Shown here one piece after another: positions 2,644-19,344 of a stretch of DNA of 21,590 nucleotides. A program made the translations under genes and the position numbers. Position 1 is the first letter of the stretch, and the number at the start of each line of letters is the position of its first letter. The DNA is from a virus, in IMG/VR virus record IMGVR_UViG_3300036761_002591, positions 1-21,590 of that record; one strand, written 5' to 3'. A model generated the notes under the pieces. That model was not told where the DNA came from and made no database searches. It worked only from the letters and a program-made list of their open reading frames with translations.

Positions 2644-3273
2644 CTAACGCCAGACGTACGCCCGTCCCGCAGTCTTCCCGGCGCGCGCCAGGCTGGCGCC
2701 CGTCCCGGCGTACGGGAAGTCCGGCATCATCGCGCCCGGACCGGAACCCGCCGAGACCCCTGGCGTCGCCACCGAGGCGCCAACAGGGGCGGTGAAGGTC
2801 AGGACGACCGGATCCGCGCGCACACCTCGCAGCGGCAGATAGTGGACCTCCAGGACCTCCGGAAGGAAGATGCCCGTCACCGAGTCAGAGGCCACCTCGA
2901 TCTGCACCTGGATGCTCGTCCCGCGCGCCCAGATCGACGCCTCAACCACGGTCTCCTCGGGGGAGAAGGTCGGGGCGCCGCGCGTGATGGTGATCGTCTG
3001 GTCGGAGGCATGACCGGTCGTGTCGTACACCTGGGTTCGCCGCTCGTCGACCCAGACCTTCATGGTCAAGGCGAAGGCGCTGGTCCGCCAGAGCCGGAGC
3101 GCCACCCGCCGGAAGTAGCAAAGCCCGTCCTGGCCGGCGGGGGTGAAGCGCTCCGTCTTGAGCGTGCCGGTGTAGACGCCCCCGTCGTCCGCCGTTCCGG
3201 TGTCGATGCCGACCCGCCCGACCTTGTAGATCCGGGAGCCACCGCGTTCGCCGATGAAGAGCTGGGCTGGCAT
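2644..3273 (-). CDS. Tail-module protein with C-terminal PGVSAG repeat, hypothetical
   Basis: This 209-residue protein begins MPAQLFIGERGGSRIYKVGRVG and is beta-rich to about residue 158. Its C-terminus (residues 165-181, GASVATPGVSAGSG and following) carries the Ala/Gly/Pro module that is tandemly repeated in the 79-residue protein beside TerL and occurs once in the 661-residue surface protein. A basic tail (SLARAGKTAGRAYVWR) ends the chain. No enzyme motif is visible. Its ATG directly abuts the stop of the propeller gene, so the two are probably translated together and may assemble together. The function is unknown beyond a likely tail component. Confidence 0.6.
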   Translation of the reverse strand: MPAQLFIGERGGSRIYKVGRVGIDTGTADDGGVYTGTLKTERFTPAGQDGLCYFRRVALRLWRTSAFALTMKVWVDERRTQVYDTTGHASDQTITITRGAPTFSPEETVVEASIWARGTSIQVQIEVASDSVTGIFLPEVLEVHYLPLRGVRADPVVLTFTAPVGASVATPGVSAGSGPGAMMPDFPYAGTGASLARAGKTAGRAYVWR

Positions 3274-6542: not shown

Positions 6543-8528
6543 CTACCTCTCTAGCGAAAGAGTGCTGAGACCGCCGCCGTTCGCCCACGTCGTGGAGTGC
6601 CCACCAGTCACGGTGAGGTCCGCCCACCACGCCACCCGCCCGCCGGCCAGGTCGAGGTACTTCGGCGTCACCGAGAGGACCGCCGCGGGGAGGACGCCGT
6701 CCCACTCGGTCCACCCGCCGCCGAACTCCCCCGCGTGGTGCTGGGAGGGCTCCAGGGCGAGCTGCACCGTCTGCCCGACCGTGACGACGCCCGAGAACGG
6801 CAGGGTCGCCGTCGTGCCGTCCAGGTCCGTAACGGTGACGAACCGCACGTGCGGCAGATCCGCCGCGGACGGCGCGTCGATCAGGGTGTAGGTGAAAGAT
6901 GTCGCCGTGGGGAGGGCGGTGACAGTGGCGAAGCCGAAGAAGGTGCGCACGCCGCCGCCCGCCGGCTCCCAGAAGGGCAGGATCCGCCGGCAGCCCCGGC
7001 ACTCGAAGCCCAGGCGCTGCGCCACCCCGGCAGGCCAGGGGACAGCGCCGTAGGTGTAGACCACGCTGGCGTGGGGCTCGCGCGCCGTCAAGATCGCGGT
7101 GGTCGCGGTGAGCGCCTGAAGGGCGACGACAACGCCGTCCGAGCCGTCCACCAGATCCGCGCAGCCCATCACACCCGCCGGCCCCGGCATGAAGGTCGTC
7201 CCAACCCCGGCGGAGACGCCGGGCGCCGCGCTCGACGCCACGGCACCGGCGAGCGAGAGCGTGAGCTCGACCGTGATCACCTGGGGATCCCCGTCGTTCT
7301 CCGCGGAGTCGACCGTCACGGCCCCGTGGTAGACGCCGGCGGTCAGGGCCCCGGGGTCGCAGACAATGGACACGCTGGTCGGGGCGGCCGTCGCGGCCAA
7401 GGTCGGAGTGATCCATCCGTCCCCGTCGGTGTACGACGCCACCGCCGTCAGGTTGCCGAGGGGGAATCCTGCCGGCACCTGGGTGATGTCGATCGCCTGC
7501 GCCGCCGTGGGGACCCCATTGACCAGGGCCGCGAACGTCAGGTGGTCGTGCGCAACGAGGGCCGCCAACTGGATGGTGGCAAACTTCGTGAAGACGGTAC
7601 TGCCCCCCACGGCGGTGCCCCACAACCCCACATAGGTGTGCCCGTTCCCGATGAAGGTCGGGGAGAGGGTCTTGGTGGTCAGGAAGGTGTAGCTCGAGCC
7701 GTCCACCGCCCCAATGTAGAAATGCACGCTCGCGCCCACGAAGTGCAGCAGCATCCGCTTGGCGGTATCGCGGACCCACGCATAGCCCGTGGCAATCGTG
7801 CCACTCCCGTGGTTCGTGACCCCCGCCATGTGCGCCCACACGAGATTGCACGTCGTGGCCCCATCGTTATCCACGATGAACCGCACAAAGTCCACCCCAT
7901 TACTCGAAGCGCGACCGACCACCCCCGGCTTGGGAGTTCCCGCGTACCCCGAGGTGCGCGTGATGTCGGCATAGACGATGTAACTGTCGTCAATGCCCGC
8001 ATTGATGTAGGCTTCATCCGCGTTCCCACTACAACACCCCAGAGTGAGGACGTTCCCCGTGATACTGTAGTTGGCCAGTGTCCCCGCCCATGCTGATCCA
8101 CCGGGACACGTATCGGGCGCGTGATCGTGGAGATGCGTGCCGTTGCTCGCATCGAAGTTGTCGAGGATCAGATCGTCTTCGACCGAACTGCTGACGTAGA
8201 TCGTCCCATTCAACGGCCCACCCGAGACGACGACCGTGCCGCTACTCCCGGCCCCACAGCCCACCGTCACATCCACGTAGCTGTTGGCGGACTCGGGGTT
8301 CTCGCCGAGGAGGCCGTTGTACGCCCCCCAGCTGGGGGTATAGGTCGCGGGCGCGTGGGAGGCGGTGGCGTCCCCGGTCGGGGTGACGACCGTGGTGATG
8401 GGGACCGGAGCCGTGTACGCGGGACCGAACCCCTCCGCGTACAAGCTGAAGCGCACGACCTTGGTCTCCGCCCCGTGCACGACGACGTAAGCGACCGAGG
8501 GGCTGGTGAAGGTCGTGCGATCTGCCAT
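6543..8528 (-). CDS. Multidomain virion surface protein (LamG-like and BACON-like)
   Basis: This is a 661-residue protein. Residues about 1-115 form a beta domain of unknown type. Residues about 120-322 (from LDNFDASNGTHLHDH to FTKFATIQLA) look like a concanavalin/LamG-type jelly roll, with GRASSNGVDFVRFIVDN and MLLHFVGASVHFYIG in the expected strand pattern. Residues about 328-426 match the BACON/Ig-like pattern: DHLTFAALVNG, a central GDGWITPTLAAT, then LTAGVYHGAVTVDSA and VITVELTLS. Residues 428-446 carry the PGVSAG module. The C-terminal 200 residues are beta-rich with a CRGC pair (C510, C513). Both domain types are often carbohydrate-binding, so adhesion to glycans is the likely job. It fits between small structural genes with gaps of 3 bases. 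Confidence 0.6.
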   Translation of the reverse strand: MADRTTFTSPSVAYVVVHGAETKVVRFSLYAEGFGPAYTAPVPITTVVTPTGDATASHAPATYTPSWGAYNGLLGENPESANSYVDVTVGCGAGSSGTVVVSGGPLNGTIYVSSSVEDDLILDNFDASNGTHLHDHAPDTCPGGSAWAGTLANYSITGNVLTLGCCSGNADEAYINAGIDDSYIVYADITRTSGYAGTPKPGVVGRASSNGVDFVRFIVDNDGATTCNLVWAHMAGVTNHGSGTIATGYAWVRDTAKRMLLHFVGASVHFYIGAVDGSSYTFLTTKTLSPTFIGNGHTYVGLWGTAVGGSTVFTKFATIQLAALVAHDHLTFAALVNGVPTAAQAIDITQVPAGFPLGNLTAVASYTDGDGWITPTLAATAAPTSVSIVCDPGALTAGVYHGAVTVDSAENDGDPQVITVELTLSLAGAVASSAAPGVSAGVGTTFMPGPAGVMGCADLVDGSDGVVVALQALTATTAILTAREPHASVVYTYGAVPWPAGVAQRLGFECRGCRRILPFWEPAGGGVRTFFGFATVTALPTATSFTYTLIDAPSAADLPHVRFVTVTDLDGTTATLPFSGVVTVGQTVQLALEPSQHHAGEFGGGWTEWDGVLPAAVLSVTPKYLDLAGGRVAWWADLTVTGGHSTTWANGGGLSTLSLER

Positions 8529-8531
8529 GCG

Positions 8532-8726
8532 CTACCCTTCGACCACGGCGATCGTCTGGGGGAGGTTGACGCGCTCGGGCGCCGTCAGCTGGAAGAGGCC
8601 GGCGACTTCCTTGTCGGCCTGCGTCAGCTCACGGAGCAGGACGCCGGGGGCGACGGAGGCCTCGGTGGCATAGGGGAACGCCAGCAGCTCGGCGGCGGTC
8701 AGGATGTCAGCGGCGATGAGGGCCAT
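8532..8726 (-). CDS. Small hypothetical phage protein (64 aa)
   Basis: This 64-residue, mildly acidic, mostly helical protein (MALIAADILTAAELLAF at the start, TQADKEVAGLFQLTAPERVN later) has no recognised domain. Its ATG lies inside the last 20 bases of the zinc-finger gene, with GGAG about 6 bases upstream, and its stop is three bases before the surface-protein ATG. The overlap and spacing fit a translated member of the operon, probably a small virion or assembly factor. I cannot assign a function. Confidence 0.6.
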   Translation of the reverse strand: MALIAADILTAAELLAFPYATEASVAPGVLLRELTQADKEVAGLFQLTAPERVNLPQTIAVVEG

Positions 8727-12452: not shown

Positions 12453-13718
12453 CTACTCGGCGAGCGAGTAGATGTAGCCGTTCGCCGCGGGCAACAGGCA
12501 CGCGGTGTTCCGGTACGTCCGCAGCACGGCGCGGTACGTGTCGGAGGTCAGGAGGAAGTTCAGCACGGAGCCGCCGTTCCCCTCGATCCACTCCACGTCC
12601 TTGTCGATCGCGTGGTACCAGGTGTCGGTCGAGATGAAGCCGATGTGCTGGGGCGGGAAGAACCGCTCCGCCAGGACCGGCACGTCGTCGTACATGACCG
12701 AGTTCTCGCGCAGCCCGCCCGTGATGACCATGGGCATGTACCGGATCTGCGGCGCGAACAGGTTGTAGATGTTCCGGCGCTGCTTGTAGTTCGCGACGAT
12801 GTAGTTCGGGGTCTTGCCTGAGACCTCCATGATCGCGTCCATCTCGTCCCGCAGCATGTCCGGATCGAGCGCGGTCAGCGTTCCGGCGCCGGCCGACGCG
12901 TCGGTGATGACGCCCTGCCACTCGGGAAGGCCCGAGCGGGTGATGTTGAGGTACGTCCCCGCCGTGCTGACCGCGTGGAAGAAGCCGGTCGGCTCGTAGG
13001 TCGCCTCGCCCGCGAGGACGCGAGAGCCAGCGCGCACGATGTCGTACGTGTTGGCGGGGGTGCCCGTCTCGGCCGGCGCGAAGGTGACCGTGGTGAGACC
13101 GGTCGACGCGGTGTGAACGAGCGCCGAGATGGCCGAGTTGGTGACGTGCAGGCCCCACGTCGTGGTCGGGGCCCGGATGTCGATGGGCATGCCGACCCGG
13201 AGGATGTTCTTCACGGGCACGTCGCCGACGTAGGTCGTGAGGCCGAACGGCGAGTGCGCGTAGACGGAGGTGGTGCCGATCCGGCTGGAGACGAGGCCGA
13301 TGATGCCCAGCGACGCGCTGAGGATCATGCGGGCCATGTCGAGCCGCACGCCGGTCGTGGTGTTCTCCAGCTGGAGGGCGAGGGCATCCTCGAAGGAGCC
13401 CGCGCGATCCCGCGTGGCCGACATGGTCGGTCCGGAGATGTCGAAGGTGGCGTACACGTACTTCGCGGTCACCTCGGCCAGCGACGGGGCGGCGACCTGC
13501 GAGTCGCCGAATGTGCCACGATCCGCGCGAGCATAGATGCCCTCGTTGACGCCGAACTGGACGGGAAAGATGCCCTTGCGGCCCGAGAGGGTCAGGGTCT
13601 GGGTGATCTTCTCCGCCATCGGCGTCGCGGTGTTCATGACCTTCTGGATCTCGTCCAGGATCGGACGGTCCTTCAGGATCTTGTCGAGCTGACTGAGGTC
13701 AGCATAGGAAGCAGCCAT
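12453..13718 (-). CDS. Major capsid protein (HK97 fold)
   Basis: This 421-residue protein makes the head shell. It lies directly after the scaffold gene and has the usual size and composition of HK97-fold coat proteins: a helical N-terminal arm (DLSQLDKILKDRPILDEIQKV), a long spine-helix region (FEDALALQLENTTTGVRLDMARMIL, residues about 110-133), a beta-rich middle that may be an inserted domain (residues about 190-275), and a C-terminal A-domain part (NYIVANYKQRRNIYNLF; VPVLAERFFPPQHIGFISTD). An excellent AGGAG sits 6 bases before the ATG, preceded by a small hairpin, as expected for the most highly translated gene. It has its own 199-base leader and a strong hairpin downstream, so its expression is probably set separately within the operon. 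Confidence 0.88.
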   Translation of the reverse strand: MAASYADLSQLDKILKDRPILDEIQKVMNTATPMAEKITQTLTLSGRKGIFPVQFGVNEGIYARADRGTFGDSQVAAPSLAEVTAKYVYATFDISGPTMSATRDRAGSFEDALALQLENTTTGVRLDMARMILSASLGIIGLVSSRIGTTSVYAHSPFGLTTYVGDVPVKNILRVGMPIDIRAPTTTWGLHVTNSAISALVHTASTGLTTVTFAPAETGTPANTYDIVRAGSRVLAGEATYEPTGFFHAVSTAGTYLNITRSGLPEWQGVITDASAGAGTLTALDPDMLRDEMDAIMEVSGKTPNYIVANYKQRRNIYNLFAPQIRYMPMVITGGLRENSVMYDDVPVLAERFFPPQHIGFISTDTWYHAIDKDVEWIEGNGGSVLNFLLTSDTYRAVLRTYRNTACLLPAANGYIYSLAE

Positions 13719-14934: not shown

Positions 14935-17007
14935 CTACGTATCTCCAGACTTCGCGGAGGTGGGTTTCGCCTCGTCCGTCCCGGTGAGGACGCCGACGAG
15001 GGCCTGCACAAGCGCCTTGCCGAGCTCCTCGCGCGTCTTCCCGGCCGACTCGGTCGTCGCCCGGATCTCGCGGAGAGCCTTCTCCTGATCCTGCATCGCC
15101 TTCTGCTGGTCGTCCTGCGCCTGCTTGGCCTTCTGCTCGTGCTGGCCGATGTGCTGCTTCATCGCCTCCTGCCCCGGCGGCGGCCACCCACGGAAGCTCA
15201 CCGACTTGACCTCCTTGTAGTGCTCGGCGAGGTGGGCGGAATCCTCCTGCCACGGAAGCACCTGGGGCGCCTGCTGGGGGTCCTGAAGCGCGCGGAAGAC
15301 GTAGTTCTCGTTGCGCGCCTCGGTGACGTCCGGATCCAGGGTCTGAAAGCCCCGCTCCAGCCCCGAGGCGTCCATCGCCGCGTCCACGCGCTCGCGGTCG
15401 AGCTGACCGTCCGGGGAGGTGAAGAGCATCTGCCCCGCCGGCGTGCCGAGGAGCGCAATGACGGCGTCGCGGGTCGACTGCTGATTCCAGGTGTAGAGGC
15501 TCGTCTCGTCGATGTGGATGGCGGCCTTGAGATCCTGGAGCTCCGACCCCAGGAACTCGCGCCACTGGTAGACGCGGTCGGCGCCGACCAGGGCGATGGT
15601 CCGGGGCTCGGTATAGAACTTCGCGACGTAGTCGAGGAGGATGTACGCGAGCTCCTTCCAGGACTCCGTGGAGTTCAGGACGGCCAGGGCGATGTCGTCG
15701 CCGTCGTTGAGCTGATGGAGCGGCTGACGGAACCGCTGGGTCGTGTCGCCGGGCGCCGGCTCCTTCTGATTGCGGAAGCTGCGCAGGCCGATGGTCTGGA
15801 GGGCCTGGAAGGCCTCCTGGCGCAGCTGCTCGAACGCCGCGGGCGGCTGGGGCATCTGGTCGTAGGACGGCGCGGCCCCCGCGGCGAAGGTGATCTCCTG
15901 CCCGGGCTCCTCGTCGAAATCCCCCTTCTTGATCCCGCCACCTGCGACGAGCAGGCGCTTGGGGGTGATCTTGTTCTGCCACTCCAAGGTCTTCTTCAGG
16001 GACTTGGAGTAGAGCTTGTTGGCGTTCCGGACGTCGAACAGCGTCGACACGCCGAAGGTCGGATGCCCCGGCAGCGGGATCCACCGGAACGACACGACGG
16101 GGATATGGCGCGCCGGCAGGGGCAGCGGCTTGGCGAGCAGCTGCGTCCCCGAACAGACCCACCACAGCCCCTGGGGGTTGCGGTAGGACCGAGGCAGGTA
16201 GTGCTCGATGACGAGCGCCCGGTCTTCATCGACGAGGGTCGTCGAGCCGGTGGAGGAGAGCTGCAGGAGGTCCGTGGAGATGGCCGCGTGCGCCTTCTGG
16301 TAAGCCAGCGTCTTGGCGATCGGCTCCCCGAGCCGCGCCTCCGCCTCGTCGTAGGAGACCAGCGTGCCGACCATCTTGCCGTGCCGGAGGTCGAAGGGCA
16401 GCCGCACCAGCTGCGGCGAGATGACGTCGAGGCCGATCTCCCCGGCGTCCATCATCAGGGGCTGCGCCATCGACGGGTCGGGCTGGAGCGTCTCCGGGTT
16501 GATGGGGATCAGCTGCATCTGCCCCGTCTGCGGGTCCTGCTGGGGCATCGCGAGCGGCAGGAGGTCACCGGTGTCGGCGTTCCAGTAGACCCGCACCGCC
16601 GCATTGCCGGTCGCCAGGAGCCACGAGCCGAGGTCCGCCTTGATGGGCGCGATGCGGGTGTCGTGGAGGTGGGCGAGCACCGTGTCGGCGAGCTCGGCCT
16701 TGGCGATCTTCGCCGGCTCGGCGCCGTCCGGCCAGGCGGAGAAGCGCAGCTTCGTCTGCATCCACTGCCGCAGGTAGTCCGCGTAGAGCGCCCCGGTGAA
16801 GTTGATGATGGGGAACTCCTCCCAGCGGGGGATGGCGGCCTGGTCGAGGGTCTGGAGGGTCTTCCAGTGCTCGGAGCGGATGAAGTCGATCGTCATCCGC
16901 CAGCGCTCGACCCAGTGGCGGTAGAACCCGTCCAGCGCCCCCCACACCTGGTTGGTGAAGACGGCGTACGCCTGCGGGTCGTCGGAGGCTACAGGAAGTC
17001 GGGCCAT
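14935..17007 (-). CDS. Portal protein
   Basis: This 690-residue protein forms the twelve-fold DNA channel at the head vertex. Its size and its place between terminase and scaffold match podovirus (P22-like) portals. Visible features are a helical N-terminal region with aromatic clusters (FYRHWVERWRMTIDFIRSEH), a mixed body with EIGLDVISPQLVRLPFD (residues about 212-228), a central stem-like helical part (NANKLYSKSLKKTLEWQNK), and a Gln/Lys/Glu-rich C-terminal helix (residues about 610-665) that probably forms the barrel or crown. GAGG lies 8 bases before the ATG, overlapping the end of the 57-residue membrane gene's coding sequence. No frameshift is seen. Confidence 0.82.
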   Translation of the reverse strand: MARLPVASDDPQAYAVFTNQVWGALDGFYRHWVERWRMTIDFIRSEHWKTLQTLDQAAIPRWEEFPIINFTGALYADYLRQWMQTKLRFSAWPDGAEPAKIAKAELADTVLAHLHDTRIAPIKADLGSWLLATGNAAVRVYWNADTGDLLPLAMPQQDPQTGQMQLIPINPETLQPDPSMAQPLMMDAGEIGLDVISPQLVRLPFDLRHGKMVGTLVSYDEAEARLGEPIAKTLAYQKAHAAISTDLLQLSSTGSTTLVDEDRALVIEHYLPRSYRNPQGLWWVCSGTQLLAKPLPLPARHIPVVSFRWIPLPGHPTFGVSTLFDVRNANKLYSKSLKKTLEWQNKITPKRLLVAGGGIKKGDFDEEPGQEITFAAGAAPSYDQMPQPPAAFEQLRQEAFQALQTIGLRSFRNQKEPAPGDTTQRFRQPLHQLNDGDDIALAVLNSTESWKELAYILLDYVAKFYTEPRTIALVGADRVYQWREFLGSELQDLKAAIHIDETSLYTWNQQSTRDAVIALLGTPAGQMLFTSPDGQLDRERVDAAMDASGLERGFQTLDPDVTEARNENYVFRALQDPQQAPQVLPWQEDSAHLAEHYKEVKSVSFRGWPPPGQEAMKQHIGQHEQKAKQAQDDQQKAMQDQEKALREIRATTESAGKTREELGKALVQALVGVLTGTDEAKPTSAKSGDT

Positions 17008-17184: not shown

Positions 17185-18687
17185 TCAGTCCTCCCGCCGT
17201 CGGCGGTCCCAGGAATCGGCGCGTTCGATGACACTCCAAGTTATCCGATCGGCCAGGGAGAGTCCATCCTTCCACGTTTCCACGACGGGGGCCGCGACAC
17301 CGCTGTGCTGGATGGTGCAGCCATAGCTGAGGCAGTCGCAGCAGTCGGCGCCATCGGCGGTATCCTTGTCAGGCTTCCCGGACTTCCCCCAGGTCAGGTG
17401 CTGCATCTCCCAGAGCAGCCGGGAGGCGACGAAGTCCTTGCCGTCCGGCAGCGACCAGGTGGAGCAGAGGGTGTTGAAGAACAGCAGCCGCGGGGCGCCG
17501 TAGAGCGGCGCATCCGCGGCGGAGTGCCGGTACACCCGCTGCTCGTTGGGCTCCAGCATCGAGTGGACCCGCAGCACCATCGCGTCGATCTTCTTCGGGA
17601 AGGGCAGCGGGATCGCGGCGATGGAGGCGCCGATCCGCTGGAAGTGCCAGTTGAGCTCCGCCGTGTCCTGGGGGTTCGCCGAGTCGACGTAGGCCGGGAC
17701 GGCGCGGTCTTTCTTCCCCACGATGGCTGCGAGGCGCTCCGCGCGGTGTGCGAGGCTCTCGTCCTGGGAGAAGTACTCGTCCGTGACGTAGTAGGTCCCG
17801 GTCGGGTCGGCGGCGAAGTAGAGGCTGGCGAAGCGGTGGTACTGGGGGTCGATGAGCAGCCAGCGCGCGTAGCCGTCCGGCACCTCGAAGGGCGGGATGA
17901 GGTGGGTCTCCGGCGCGAAGGTGTAGACGCGGCCGCTCCGGGTGATGAACTCGCCGTAGAGCCGCGAGGCGCGCGTGGCCGGGTCGGGCCAGCGCTCCTC
18001 GGCGTCCCGGATGTCCTGGTCGGAGAACCAGGGCACCAGCGAGTGGCCGTCGCGATCCGCGGTGGGGAAGTGGACGACGTCGATGCCGGGCTTGTCGCCC
18101 TGCGTCCAGGGGATGTAGTAGCCGTCCCGGACCCACGCGACGGAGACGTCGATGGGGGCGAAGGCCAGCACGATGCGACCATGGCGGTCCATGATGCGGG
18201 CCTGGGCCTCGTCGAAGATGTCCTGCTGCGGCGTCTCGTCGAGGACCGCGAGGTCCACGGAGGCGCCCTGGACACGCTTCTGCCGCATGTCGGCGGAGAG
18301 GATGTGGAGCTCGGAGTGGTTGCGGTATTCGATGATGCCGTCCCGCCAATAGGCGCGCTTGACCTCGTTCCAGGGGATGAGGCGCATCATGATCGGGCGG
18401 ATGGCCCGCCGGAACATGGGGAGGGAGGGCATGACGTACCAGACCATCACCGGCGGGTCGGGGAGCTCCGCCCAGACCGGGCGCCCGAGGCAGTAGTACT
18501 GCGTCTCCGCGACGGCGGCGTAGGACTTGCCGCTCCGGTTGCCGCCGACGGCGATGGTGAGGGTCTTCCGGCTGCGGTGCAGCGCGATCTGCTTGTCGAT
18601 AGGATGGTACTGCAGGGAGAGGGGGTCTTCCCGGCGGCGCCGGTCCAACTCCCTCTCCAGTTCCTGCAGGTTGGCGGGTTGGATCAC
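17185..18687 (-). CDS. terL: Terminase large subunit
   Basis: This 500-residue packaging motor has an N-terminal ATPase with Walker A GGNRSGKS (residues 48-55), Walker B DLAVLDE (residues 145-151, catalytic E151) and a likely coupling motif at LAFAPID (residues 174-180). The C-terminal RNase H-like nuclease has its three acidic positions at LLIDPQ (D280), YVDSAN (D335) and DCLSY (D451, or D448 in ADCC). It hydrolyses ATP to pump DNA through the portal and cuts the concatemer. The start is GTG at 18687, three bases after the upstream stop, with a weak ribosome site, so translation is probably coupled. The cysteine-rich ADCCDC around the third aspartate is unusual. Confidence 0.93.
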   Translation of the reverse strand: MIQPANLQELERELDRRRREDPLSLQYHPIDKQIALHRSRKTLTIAVGGNRSGKSYAAVAETQYYCLGRPVWAELPDPPVMVWYVMPSLPMFRRAIRPIMMRLIPWNEVKRAYWRDGIIEYRNHSELHILSADMRQKRVQGASVDLAVLDETPQQDIFDEAQARIMDRHGRIVLAFAPIDVSVAWVRDGYYIPWTQGDKPGIDVVHFPTADRDGHSLVPWFSDQDIRDAEERWPDPATRASRLYGEFITRSGRVYTFAPETHLIPPFEVPDGYARWLLIDPQYHRFASLYFAADPTGTYYVTDEYFSQDESLAHRAERLAAIVGKKDRAVPAYVDSANPQDTAELNWHFQRIGASIAAIPLPFPKKIDAMVLRVHSMLEPNEQRVYRHSAADAPLYGAPRLLFFNTLCSTWSLPDGKDFVASRLLWEMQHLTWGKSGKPDKDTADGADCCDCLSYGCTIQHSGVAAPVVETWKDGLSLADRITWSVIERADSWDRRRRED

Positions 18688-18690
18688 CGC

Positions 18691-18930
18691 TTAGCGCGGC
18701 CCCGGCACGCGCATACCCGCGAGATCCGTGAGCGCAATGGTGTAGTACCCGTACGCGACGCCAGGCGTCGCGAGCGACGCCCCCGGGCCTTTCACGCCCG
18801 CCAACCCCGTCCCGGCGGACACGCCAGACCGCGCGACACTCGCGCCGGGACCCAGCGCCCCCGCGAGCCCGATGCCGGCCGAGACACCGGGGGTCGCCGA
18901 AGACGCTCCAGGACCGAATCGGTCGGCCAT
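18691..18930 (-). CDS. 79-aa tandem PGVSAG-repeat protein
   Basis: After MADRF the protein consists of two complete 21-residue units and one partial unit starting GPGASSATPGVSAG (residue 6), GPGASVARSGVSAG (27) and GPGASLATPGVAYG (48), with LAG and a variable end between them. It finishes with a short segment (TIALTDLAGMRVPGPR). It has almost no charge in the repeat and no signal peptide. The same module occurs once in the 209- and 661-residue proteins elsewhere in the window. The gene starts 9 bases after the 134-residue gene and ends 3 bases before terL, so it is embedded in the late operon. The function is unknown; a small structural or assembly-tag protein is plausible. Confidence 0.6.
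   Translation of the reverse strand: MADRFGPGASSATPGVSAGIGLAGALGPGASVARSGVSAGTGLAGVKGPGASLATPGVAYGYYTIALTDLAGMRVPGPR
18727..18915 (-). repeat. 63-bp coding tandem repeat (three units)
   Basis: Units begin at 18915, 18852 and 18789 on the minus strand and encode the 21-residue peptide repeat; the last unit is only partly conserved. Bases differ at many third positions between units, so selection on the peptide is more likely than a very recent duplication. Confidence 0.7.
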
Positions 18931-18939
18931 ACCGCCGCC

Positions 18940-19344
18940 TTACTCGGGCAGCGTGTAGGTCAGGGACGTGATGCTGACCGTCGCGCCGTTGGCGAGCGCC
19001 GCGGAGTTCAGGACCAGGTCCGCGTCCGCCGTGCCCACGGTCCCCTGCCACACCTTTGTCGTCCCGTCGTTCTTGTAGACCCGGAAGAACGTCGCCGTCC
19101 CGGTGTGCGTGCACAGCACGTCGGCCGGCGGGGTGATGGTCAGGACGTTGGTGGTGACGGTCCCGGACGGACTCGCCATCGTGAACGTCGCGAGGACGGT
19201 GTTCGCGCCGTCCAGCGCGGTGTCCGCGGTCGCGGGCACCACATCCTCGTAGATGATCAGCTTCCCCTGTGCGCCGAGGTACGCGAGCAGCGCGTCGACC
19301 ATGTCGTTGCGGGGAAGGGCACAGGTCTTGGTGGCGACGGCCAT
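18940..19344 (-). CDS. Beta-rich virion protein, hypothetical (134 aa)
   Basis: This 134-residue protein starts with a short helix (NDMVDALLAYLGAQGKLIIYED), then alternates Thr/Ala-rich beta strands with TATFFRVYKNDGTTKVWQGTVG (residues about 83-104) and ADLVLNSAALANGATVSITSLTYTLP at the end. This pattern (YDG-type start, A-x-WFRxxKxDGTTxVxDGxVG middle, Ixx-Gxx-VxVxSxxxTxP end) recurs in many phage small structural proteins of unknown exact role, so a virion component is likely. The ribosome site GAGGG lies about 7 bases before the ATG. Its place upstream of terL, away from the tail genes, is unusual. Confidence 0.6.
   Translation of the reverse strand: MAVATKTCALPRNDMVDALLAYLGAQGKLIIYEDVVPATADTALDGANTVLATFTMASPSGTVTTNVLTITPPADVLCTHTGTATFFRVYKNDGTTKVWQGTVGTADADLVLNSAALANGATVSITSLTYTLPE

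What the first reader, a model, noticed from the sequence alone, without database searches (positions are those of the whole stretch)
18691..18930. Shared 21-residue peptide module in three unlinked virion-operon proteins
Consensus GPGASxATPGVSAGxG is tandem (about three units) in the 79-residue protein beside TerL and single in the 209-residue tail protein (coding near 2731-2779) and the 661-residue surface protein (coding near 7191-7247). The three genes are 4-16 kb apart and otherwise unlike. Codons differ between copies, so the peptide rather than recent DNA duplication seems to be kept. It could be an assembly tag that docks different proteins on one virion site, with the 79-residue protein as connector or competitor.
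Basis: partly seen in the sequence, partly recalled or inferred. Interest (0 to 1): 0.65.

Follow-up and report, generated by a model that had tools for sequence, protein, structure and literature searches.

The report
Phage tail repeat beside garland gene
Three proteins of an uncultured virus of bacteria share a short peptide that entered its genome together with a tail 'garland' protein, and in many other phages the garland gene also sits near a protein built of 21-residue repeats, which makes such repeats a testable candidate for the unidentified 'string' that holds garland beads together.

Summary
GASxATPGVSAGxG is repeated at 21-residue spacing in the 79-aa protein and occurs once each in the 209-aa and 661-aa proteins, far above chance; synonymous sites are saturated, so the peptide rather than recent DNA copying is kept. 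All three module-bearing pieces are lineage-specific: relatives lack the 79-aa and 661-aa genes, and their 209-aa homologues lack the module. The relatives also lack the neighbour of the 79-aa gene, phrog_3758, which I identify as the tail garland family (Milano gp125/gp127 and the 7-7-1 garland protein belong to it). In 13 of 16 phrog_3758 loci a nearby gene encodes a 20-22-residue tandem-repeat protein, usually period 21, of widely differing sequence. Best explanation: the 79-aa protein is a short string whose units dock garland dimers; single units in the disordered tail of a nozzle-associated protein and in an accessory tail protein are tethers. Binding is inferred, not shown. Sharing the unit between several virion proteins was not seen in five other phages.

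The parts
18691..18930 (-). 79-aa protein, three 21-residue units (proposed garland string)
   Evidence: orthologue of 120 aa with five units in L003 at the same place
18868..18909 (-). unit core 1, GASSATPGVSAGIG
18805..18846 (-). unit core 2, GASVARSGVSAGTG
18742..18783 (-). unit core 3, altered, GASLATPGVAYGYY
18940..19344 (-). phrog_3758 protein, 134 aa, tail garland family
   Evidence: phrog_3758 E 3.4e-30; matches PDB 44nx_B E 2.3e-6; Milano and 7-7-1 garland proteins are the same family
2644..3273 (-). 209-aa tail protein: beta-rich domain like tail nozzle proteins plus disordered C-tail that carries the module
   Evidence: homologues in relatives lack the module
2740..2781 (-). single unit in the 209-aa protein, GASVATPGVSAGSG
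2659..2700 (-). degenerate second unit in the 209-aa protein, GASLARAGKTAGRA
6543..8528 (-). 661-aa accessory tail protein, gene absent at this place in relatives
7200..7241 (-). single weaker unit in the 661-aa protein, VASSAAPGVSAGVG

Best explanation
The shared peptide is the repeat unit of a garland 'string'. The 79-aa protein, encoded next to a garland-family protein (phrog_3758), is a short strand with three ~21-residue sites. Each site is proposed to lie extended across one garland dimer, as the BW3 chain does across BW3TFN dimers in phage A511. Single copies in the flexible C-tail of the 209-aa nozzle-associated protein and in the 661-aa accessory tail protein are proposed tethers that fasten the garland to the tail and to an adsorption protein. 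Shown: the shared unit, constraint on the peptide, absence of both module and phrog_3758 from relatives, phrog_3758 as the garland family, and the general linkage of phrog_3758 genes to 21-residue repeat genes. Inferred: that the unit binds the garland dimer, one unit per bead, and that the single copies are tethers.
For: Module shared by three proteins beyond chance with saturated synonymous sites. L003 keeps phrog_3758 and the repeat gene side by side. Relatives, three of them 60-67 kb records, lack phrog_3758, the 79-aa gene, the 661-aa gene and the module in the 209-aa homologue. Milano garland proteins gp125/gp127 are phrog_3758, E 2.3e-32 and 5e-37; the 7-7-1 garland gene is phrog_3758, E 8.6e-36. 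13 of 16 phrog_3758 loci have a 20-22-residue repeat protein nearby; in five genomes it is the strongest period-21 protein and lies exactly two genes away. The Milano paper reports beads-on-a-string garland dimers with an unidentified string (PMC10811340). Twenty-one extended residues span about 65-70 Angstrom, about the size of a ~30 kDa dimer (inference).
Against: No complex was predicted or measured. The joint gain may be one evolutionary event. The window unit has no detectable residue similarity to units of other phages. KPP25 and CKB-S1 have phrog_3758 without a nearby 21-residue repeat and Gumball's is not significant. L036 has such repeats without phrog_3758 in its 20.7 kb record. Units are not shared with other virion proteins in five other phages. 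Unit similarity tracks garland similarity (Mantel r 0.66) but not with one phage per clade (r 0.24, p 0.13). The Milano authors favour gp126 as a possible string.
Confidence: 0.4

Rival explanations
1. The unit is only a structural element: a short low-complexity beta repeat or flexible spacer. The 79-aa protein is a small fibre or stalk, single copies in the other two are linkers, and no common partner is bound. The link to phrog_3758 reflects clustering of tail-fibre genes.
For: Poor model confidence for the repeats, with about two strands per unit; the 209-aa copy is in a disordered tail; tails of homologues are hypervariable; similar repeats occur without phrog_3758 (L036).
Against: A plain linker need not keep the sequence ATPGVSAGxG in three unlinked genes with saturated synonymous sites, nor be confined to phages with phrog_3758.
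Confidence: 0.32
2. The units bind each other: tandem units stack into a small beta structure and single units in the 209-aa and 661-aa proteins add to it, joining the three proteins without the garland.
For: The carriers bear the same unit; strand-turn-strand pattern in the low-confidence model.
Against: Model confidence is only 36; it does not explain the link of repeats to phrog_3758.
Confidence: 0.13
3. One reading: a tag for some other virion site such as the portal or capsid, with the 79-aa protein as connector or competitor.
For: The 79-aa gene adjoins the terminase gene.
Against: Capsid, portal and terminase are conserved in relatives that lack the module; what is gained with the module is phrog_3758.
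Confidence: 0.08
4. Chance resemblance of low-complexity sequence, or recent DNA copying or a mobile element.
For: Ala/Gly/Ser/Thr/Val-rich proteome; the 661-aa copy only just exceeds local shuffles.
Against: Profile scores 32.1 and 25.8 bits against 7.8 for the next protein and 12.2 for shuffles; no DNA repeats in the gene; nucleotide identity at codon-usage expectation.
Confidence: 0.05

Closest known systems
Garland proteins of Agrobacterium phages Milano (gp125/gp127) and 7-7-1, compared by the Milano authors with T4 gp8 and A511 gp105 (BW3TFN connectors)
   Same: The neighbour of the 79-aa gene belongs to the same family (phrog_3758); in both phages 21-22-residue repeat genes lie close by
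   Different: Those are contractile-tailed phages; the window phage has a P22-like portal and nozzle-like tail genes, and its repeat protein has only three units
Mycobacteriophage minor tail proteins of phrog_553/phrog_17035 type (Send513 gp32, Fowlmouth gp26, Charlie gp22)
   Same: Period-21 tandem repeats two genes from phrog_3758
   Different: Much longer proteins with extra domains; no detectable residue similarity to the window unit
Other repeat virion proteins: L021 and P26059A (LAATETGADTFAATG type), L036 (GVSAGTGxAxDAS type)
   Same: Short tandem low-complexity units of about 21-22 residues; L036 even shares GVSAGTG
   Different: Long arrays in large proteins; L036 has no phrog_3758 in its record

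Membership tests
phrog_3758 / tail garland proteins (gene 18940-19344) | Full-length match to the phrog_3758 profile | tested here: met
   residues 4-134 on profile 5-139 of 140, E 3.4e-30
phrog_3758 / tail garland proteins (gene 18940-19344) | Sequence relation to a structurally observed member | tested here: met
   PDB 44nx_B, E 2.3e-6 over residues 12-134
phrog_3758 / tail garland proteins (gene 18940-19344) | Dimers forming a garland around tail fibres in the virion | not testable with these tools
   Known for Milano and 7-7-1 from papers, not for this phage
21-residue repeat proteins linked to phrog_3758 (79-aa protein) | Tandem period of 20-22 residues above shuffles | tested here: met
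   period 21, score 117 vs shuffle maximum 38
21-residue repeat proteins linked to phrog_3758 (79-aa protein) | Gene within a few genes of phrog_3758 | tested here: met
   adjacent in the window and in L003
phrog_553-type minor tail proteins (79-aa protein) | Residue similarity of the unit or profile match | tested here: not met
   no PHROG match; unit profile comparison p 0.26-0.71 against the mycobacteriophage units
P22 gp10-like nozzle proteins (209-aa protein) | Same fold over a domain | tested here: inconclusive
   Z 8.0-8.8 to Pa223, P22 and SU10 tail proteins on a model of moderate confidence
Tail-fibre motif GVTAGTGLxGGGTSGxVTLxL | GG.TSG segment following GVTAG | tested here: not met
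   present in L017, L024, L026, L028, L034, absent from all window copies

The most novel reading that the evidence does not exclude
Sequence-hypervariable ~21-residue repeat proteins, encoded near phrog_3758 genes in widely different phages, are the string of tail garlands, one repeat per garland dimer. The window phage has gone further and carries single string units in two other tail proteins to fasten its garland.
Probability: 0.3. Interest if true: 0.75.

Novelty: new variant of a known kind. Interest (0 to 1): 0.58.

Why it matters
The Milano study says that what strings the garland beads together is unclear (PMC10811340). The gene linkage found here names concrete candidates in more than ten phages, including the two with published garlands (7-7-1_000108/000109; Milano gp002/gp003), and predicts one unit per bead. 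If true, it would give one structural role to many uncharacterised, fast-changing repeat proteins now called minor tail or hypothetical proteins, and would show how a phage can recruit proteins to its tail by carrying a single repeat unit.

Tried and rejected
Pfam and PHROG scans of the three module proteins found nothing. Single-protein searches of viral contigs with the 79-, 209- and 703-aa proteins found no relatives; terminase and an alignment of 703-aa homologues did. tblastn of the 79- and 120-aa proteins on INPHARED phages found nothing useful (the low-complexity filter is on). DNA pattern of the single unit: in 2.9 million viral contigs only L003 and one match in a minor frame; in 85,000 cellular genomes 61 matches, about 11 in the longest frame, single copies in unrelated proteins or tail-fibre-type repeats, no 20-21-residue array. 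The tandem pattern mostly found the unrelated tail-fibre motif GVTAGTGLxGGGTSG. Mobile DNA element or recent duplication rejected: no DNA repeats, identity at codon expectation. Similarity of the window unit to mycobacteriophage units, suspected by eye, was tested and not supported. A profile of mycobacteriophage units found no convincing unit in Milano gp126, 7-7-1 or window proteins. PDB hits of the 661-aa protein to DsbA-like proteins (E 0.015) were taken as chance. The model of the 120-aa orthologue (mean confidence 36) was not used for a fold search.

Full report
WHAT IS IN THE SEQUENCE. The window is a 21.6 kb viral contig whose virion genes run on the minus strand: phrog_3758 protein (18940-19344), 79-aa protein (18691-18930), terminase (17185-18687), portal (14935-17007), SU10-like major capsid protein (12453-13718), then tail genes down to 651. 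The 79-aa protein is MADRF followed by units at exact 21-residue spacing: GPGASSATPGVSAGIGLAGAL, GPGASVARSGVSAGTGLAGVK, GPGASLATPGVAYGYYTIALT. The 209-aa protein holds one good copy near its C-terminus and a degenerate second one; the 661-aa protein holds one weaker copy.

IS IT MORE THAN CHANCE. Local alignment of the 79-aa with the 209-aa and 661-aa proteins exceeds all of 2 x 1000 local-composition shuffles, the second narrowly. A profile built without those two proteins scores them 32.1 and 25.8 bits; the next window protein scores 7.8 and shuffled proteomes reach 12.2. In the same call three of 746 other proteins reached 25.8 bits or more: two (L084, L062) had been fetched because a scan of all cellular genomes found the motif there, the third is the repeat protein of L036. 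Nucleotide identity between copies is what codon usage predicts from the amino acids, and no DNA repeat is found in the gene. So the peptide is old or constrained, not freshly copied.

RELATIVES. Terminase finds 13 loci. The nearest, L003 (terminase 83%, portal 78%), has at the same place a phrog_3758 homologue and a 120-aa orthologue of the 79-aa protein with five ~20-residue units (for example IASVPTKGVSAGNGYWFRCA) and a conserved end ASLATxGxxYGxxTIxxxxxAGxRxP. The other relatives (46-58% in terminase) show no such gene. Homologues of the 209-aa protein in the relatives, 35-53% identical, share about residues 1-160 and then stop or run into unrelated tails. The 661-aa gene is missing between the homologues of genes 8532-8726 and 6078-6539 in L046, L048 and L121, and in L009/L011/L047 there is no room for it. 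phrog_3758 is found only in L003 among 13 records, three of which are 60-67 kb. All module-bearing segments and phrog_3758 are therefore absent from the relatives together. Whether they were gained in one or several events cannot be told, because L003 is only 6 kb.

THE PARTNER FAMILY. phrog_3758 is labelled 'virion structural protein'. Its solved members are 44nx_B (147 residues, the length of KPP25 gp07, in an entry that also holds a chain matching KPP25 gp06 over all 620 residues) and 9rkv_A. 9RKV is the tail-fibre entry of phage 7-7-1, whose paper describes homodimeric garland proteins that contact the short and long tail fibres (PMC12796354). In the 7-7-1 genome the 141-aa gene next to the 587-aa fibre gene is phrog_3758 with E 8.6e-36, and a paralogue lies two genes on; equating it with the garland protein of the paper rests on its length and position. 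Milano's garland proteins gp125 and gp127 are phrog_3758 with E 2.3e-32 and 5e-37. The Milano paper states that these dimers resemble T4 gp8 and A511 gp105, that in A511 an extended chain runs across each dimer like beads on a string, and that in Milano the string is unclear, with gp126 a possible candidate not detected in the proteome (PMC10811340). Assigning the window protein to this family is well supported; that it forms a garland in this phage is inference.

A GENERAL LINKAGE. I examined the neighbours of phrog_3758 in 16 loci. A neighbour with a 20-22-residue tandem repeat above all shuffles is present in 13: window (21), L003 (20), L021 (22), P26059A, ctvy9321, Send513, Charlie, Fowlmouth, StAugustine, RHph_N46, 501E54-1 and 7-7-1 (all 21) and Milano (22 and 21). 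In 7-7-1 and Milano the repeat genes are the second and third after the second garland gene. It is absent or not significant in Gumball, CKB-S1 and KPP25. As a control I scanned 167 proteins of five phages: in each the strongest period-21 protein lies exactly two genes from phrog_3758 (counted among the proteins tested), and only five other proteins show any 15-30-residue periodicity, mostly of other lengths. Several of these phages are related (the mycobacteriophages; 7-7-1 with Milano), so independent lineages number about eight. Unit sequences differ widely; the window unit is not detectably similar to the others. Similarity of units tracks similarity of garland proteins (Mantel r 0.66) but not when one phage per clade is kept (r 0.24, p 0.13).

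STRUCTURE. The 120-aa orthologue gives a poor model (mean confidence 36), though with about two strands per unit. The 209-aa protein has a beta-rich domain (confidence about 70) and a low-confidence, probably disordered tail that holds the module. The domain aligns with tail proteins of Pa223, P22 and SU10 at Z 8.0-8.8, which is suggestive only.

MECHANISM. I propose that each ~21-residue unit lies extended across one garland dimer, so that the 79-aa protein is a three-site string and the single units in the 209-aa tail and the 661-aa protein tether the garland. Twenty-one extended residues span about 65-70 Angstrom, about the size of a 30 kDa dimer (inference). The step 'unit binds garland dimer' is untested. 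Weaker readings are a plain spacer or a self-stacking repeat. Sharing the unit between several virion proteins seems special to this phage: in five other phages the arrays do not match other virion proteins, apart from a weak match of Charlie gp22 to its own phrog_3758 protein.

CELLULAR AND VIRAL FREQUENCY. The single-unit DNA pattern finds only L003 as a real match in 2.9 million viral contigs, and in 85,000 cellular genomes only scattered matches without 20-21-residue arrays. The second is met in part: the copy in the 209-aa protein is predicted disordered, and only one related phage conserves the array.

VERDICT. Observation confirmed; interpretation partly supported and redirected to a named partner. 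New variant of a known kind (repeat-bearing phage tail proteins near garland genes), with a testable link to an open structural question.

Noticed in passing
L144 14297-16740 (7-7-1_000108, 000109) and L145 1527-3916 (Milano gp002, gp003): Period-21/22 repeat proteins near the garland genes of two structurally studied phages. The paper on 7-7-1 says the proteins of its flexible head fibres are unknown, so these could also be candidates for that.
   Followed up: partly
L005 5298-6017: A relative encodes, directly upstream of terminase, a different 239-aa protein with its own repeats (EDE..PTIQQPW type): the slot beside terminase seems to collect repeat proteins.
   Followed up: no
L012 9303-9649: Two short neighbouring proteins before terminase share a YFWxDQxE motif (MPSAWAHEYFWKDQGE and MPTAALHSYFWLDQEE), apparently a small tandem gene pair.
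   Followed up: no
window 6543-8528: By eye the 661-aa protein looks like a LamG-like domain, a BACON-like domain, the module, then a beta-rich C-terminal part; no Pfam match supports this.
   Followed up: partly
L036 minus strand, 813-aa open frame: Another phage has a long array of ~22-residue units including GVSAGTGAALDAS, with no phrog_3758 in its 20.7 kb record.
   Followed up: partly
L037 1501-2067: The homologue of the 209-aa protein in a relative ends in a different Gly/Pro/Ser-rich tail (GGVVSGGGVGAPPPSAPSPPSLPVSG), so this C-tail is a hypervariable position.
   Followed up: partly
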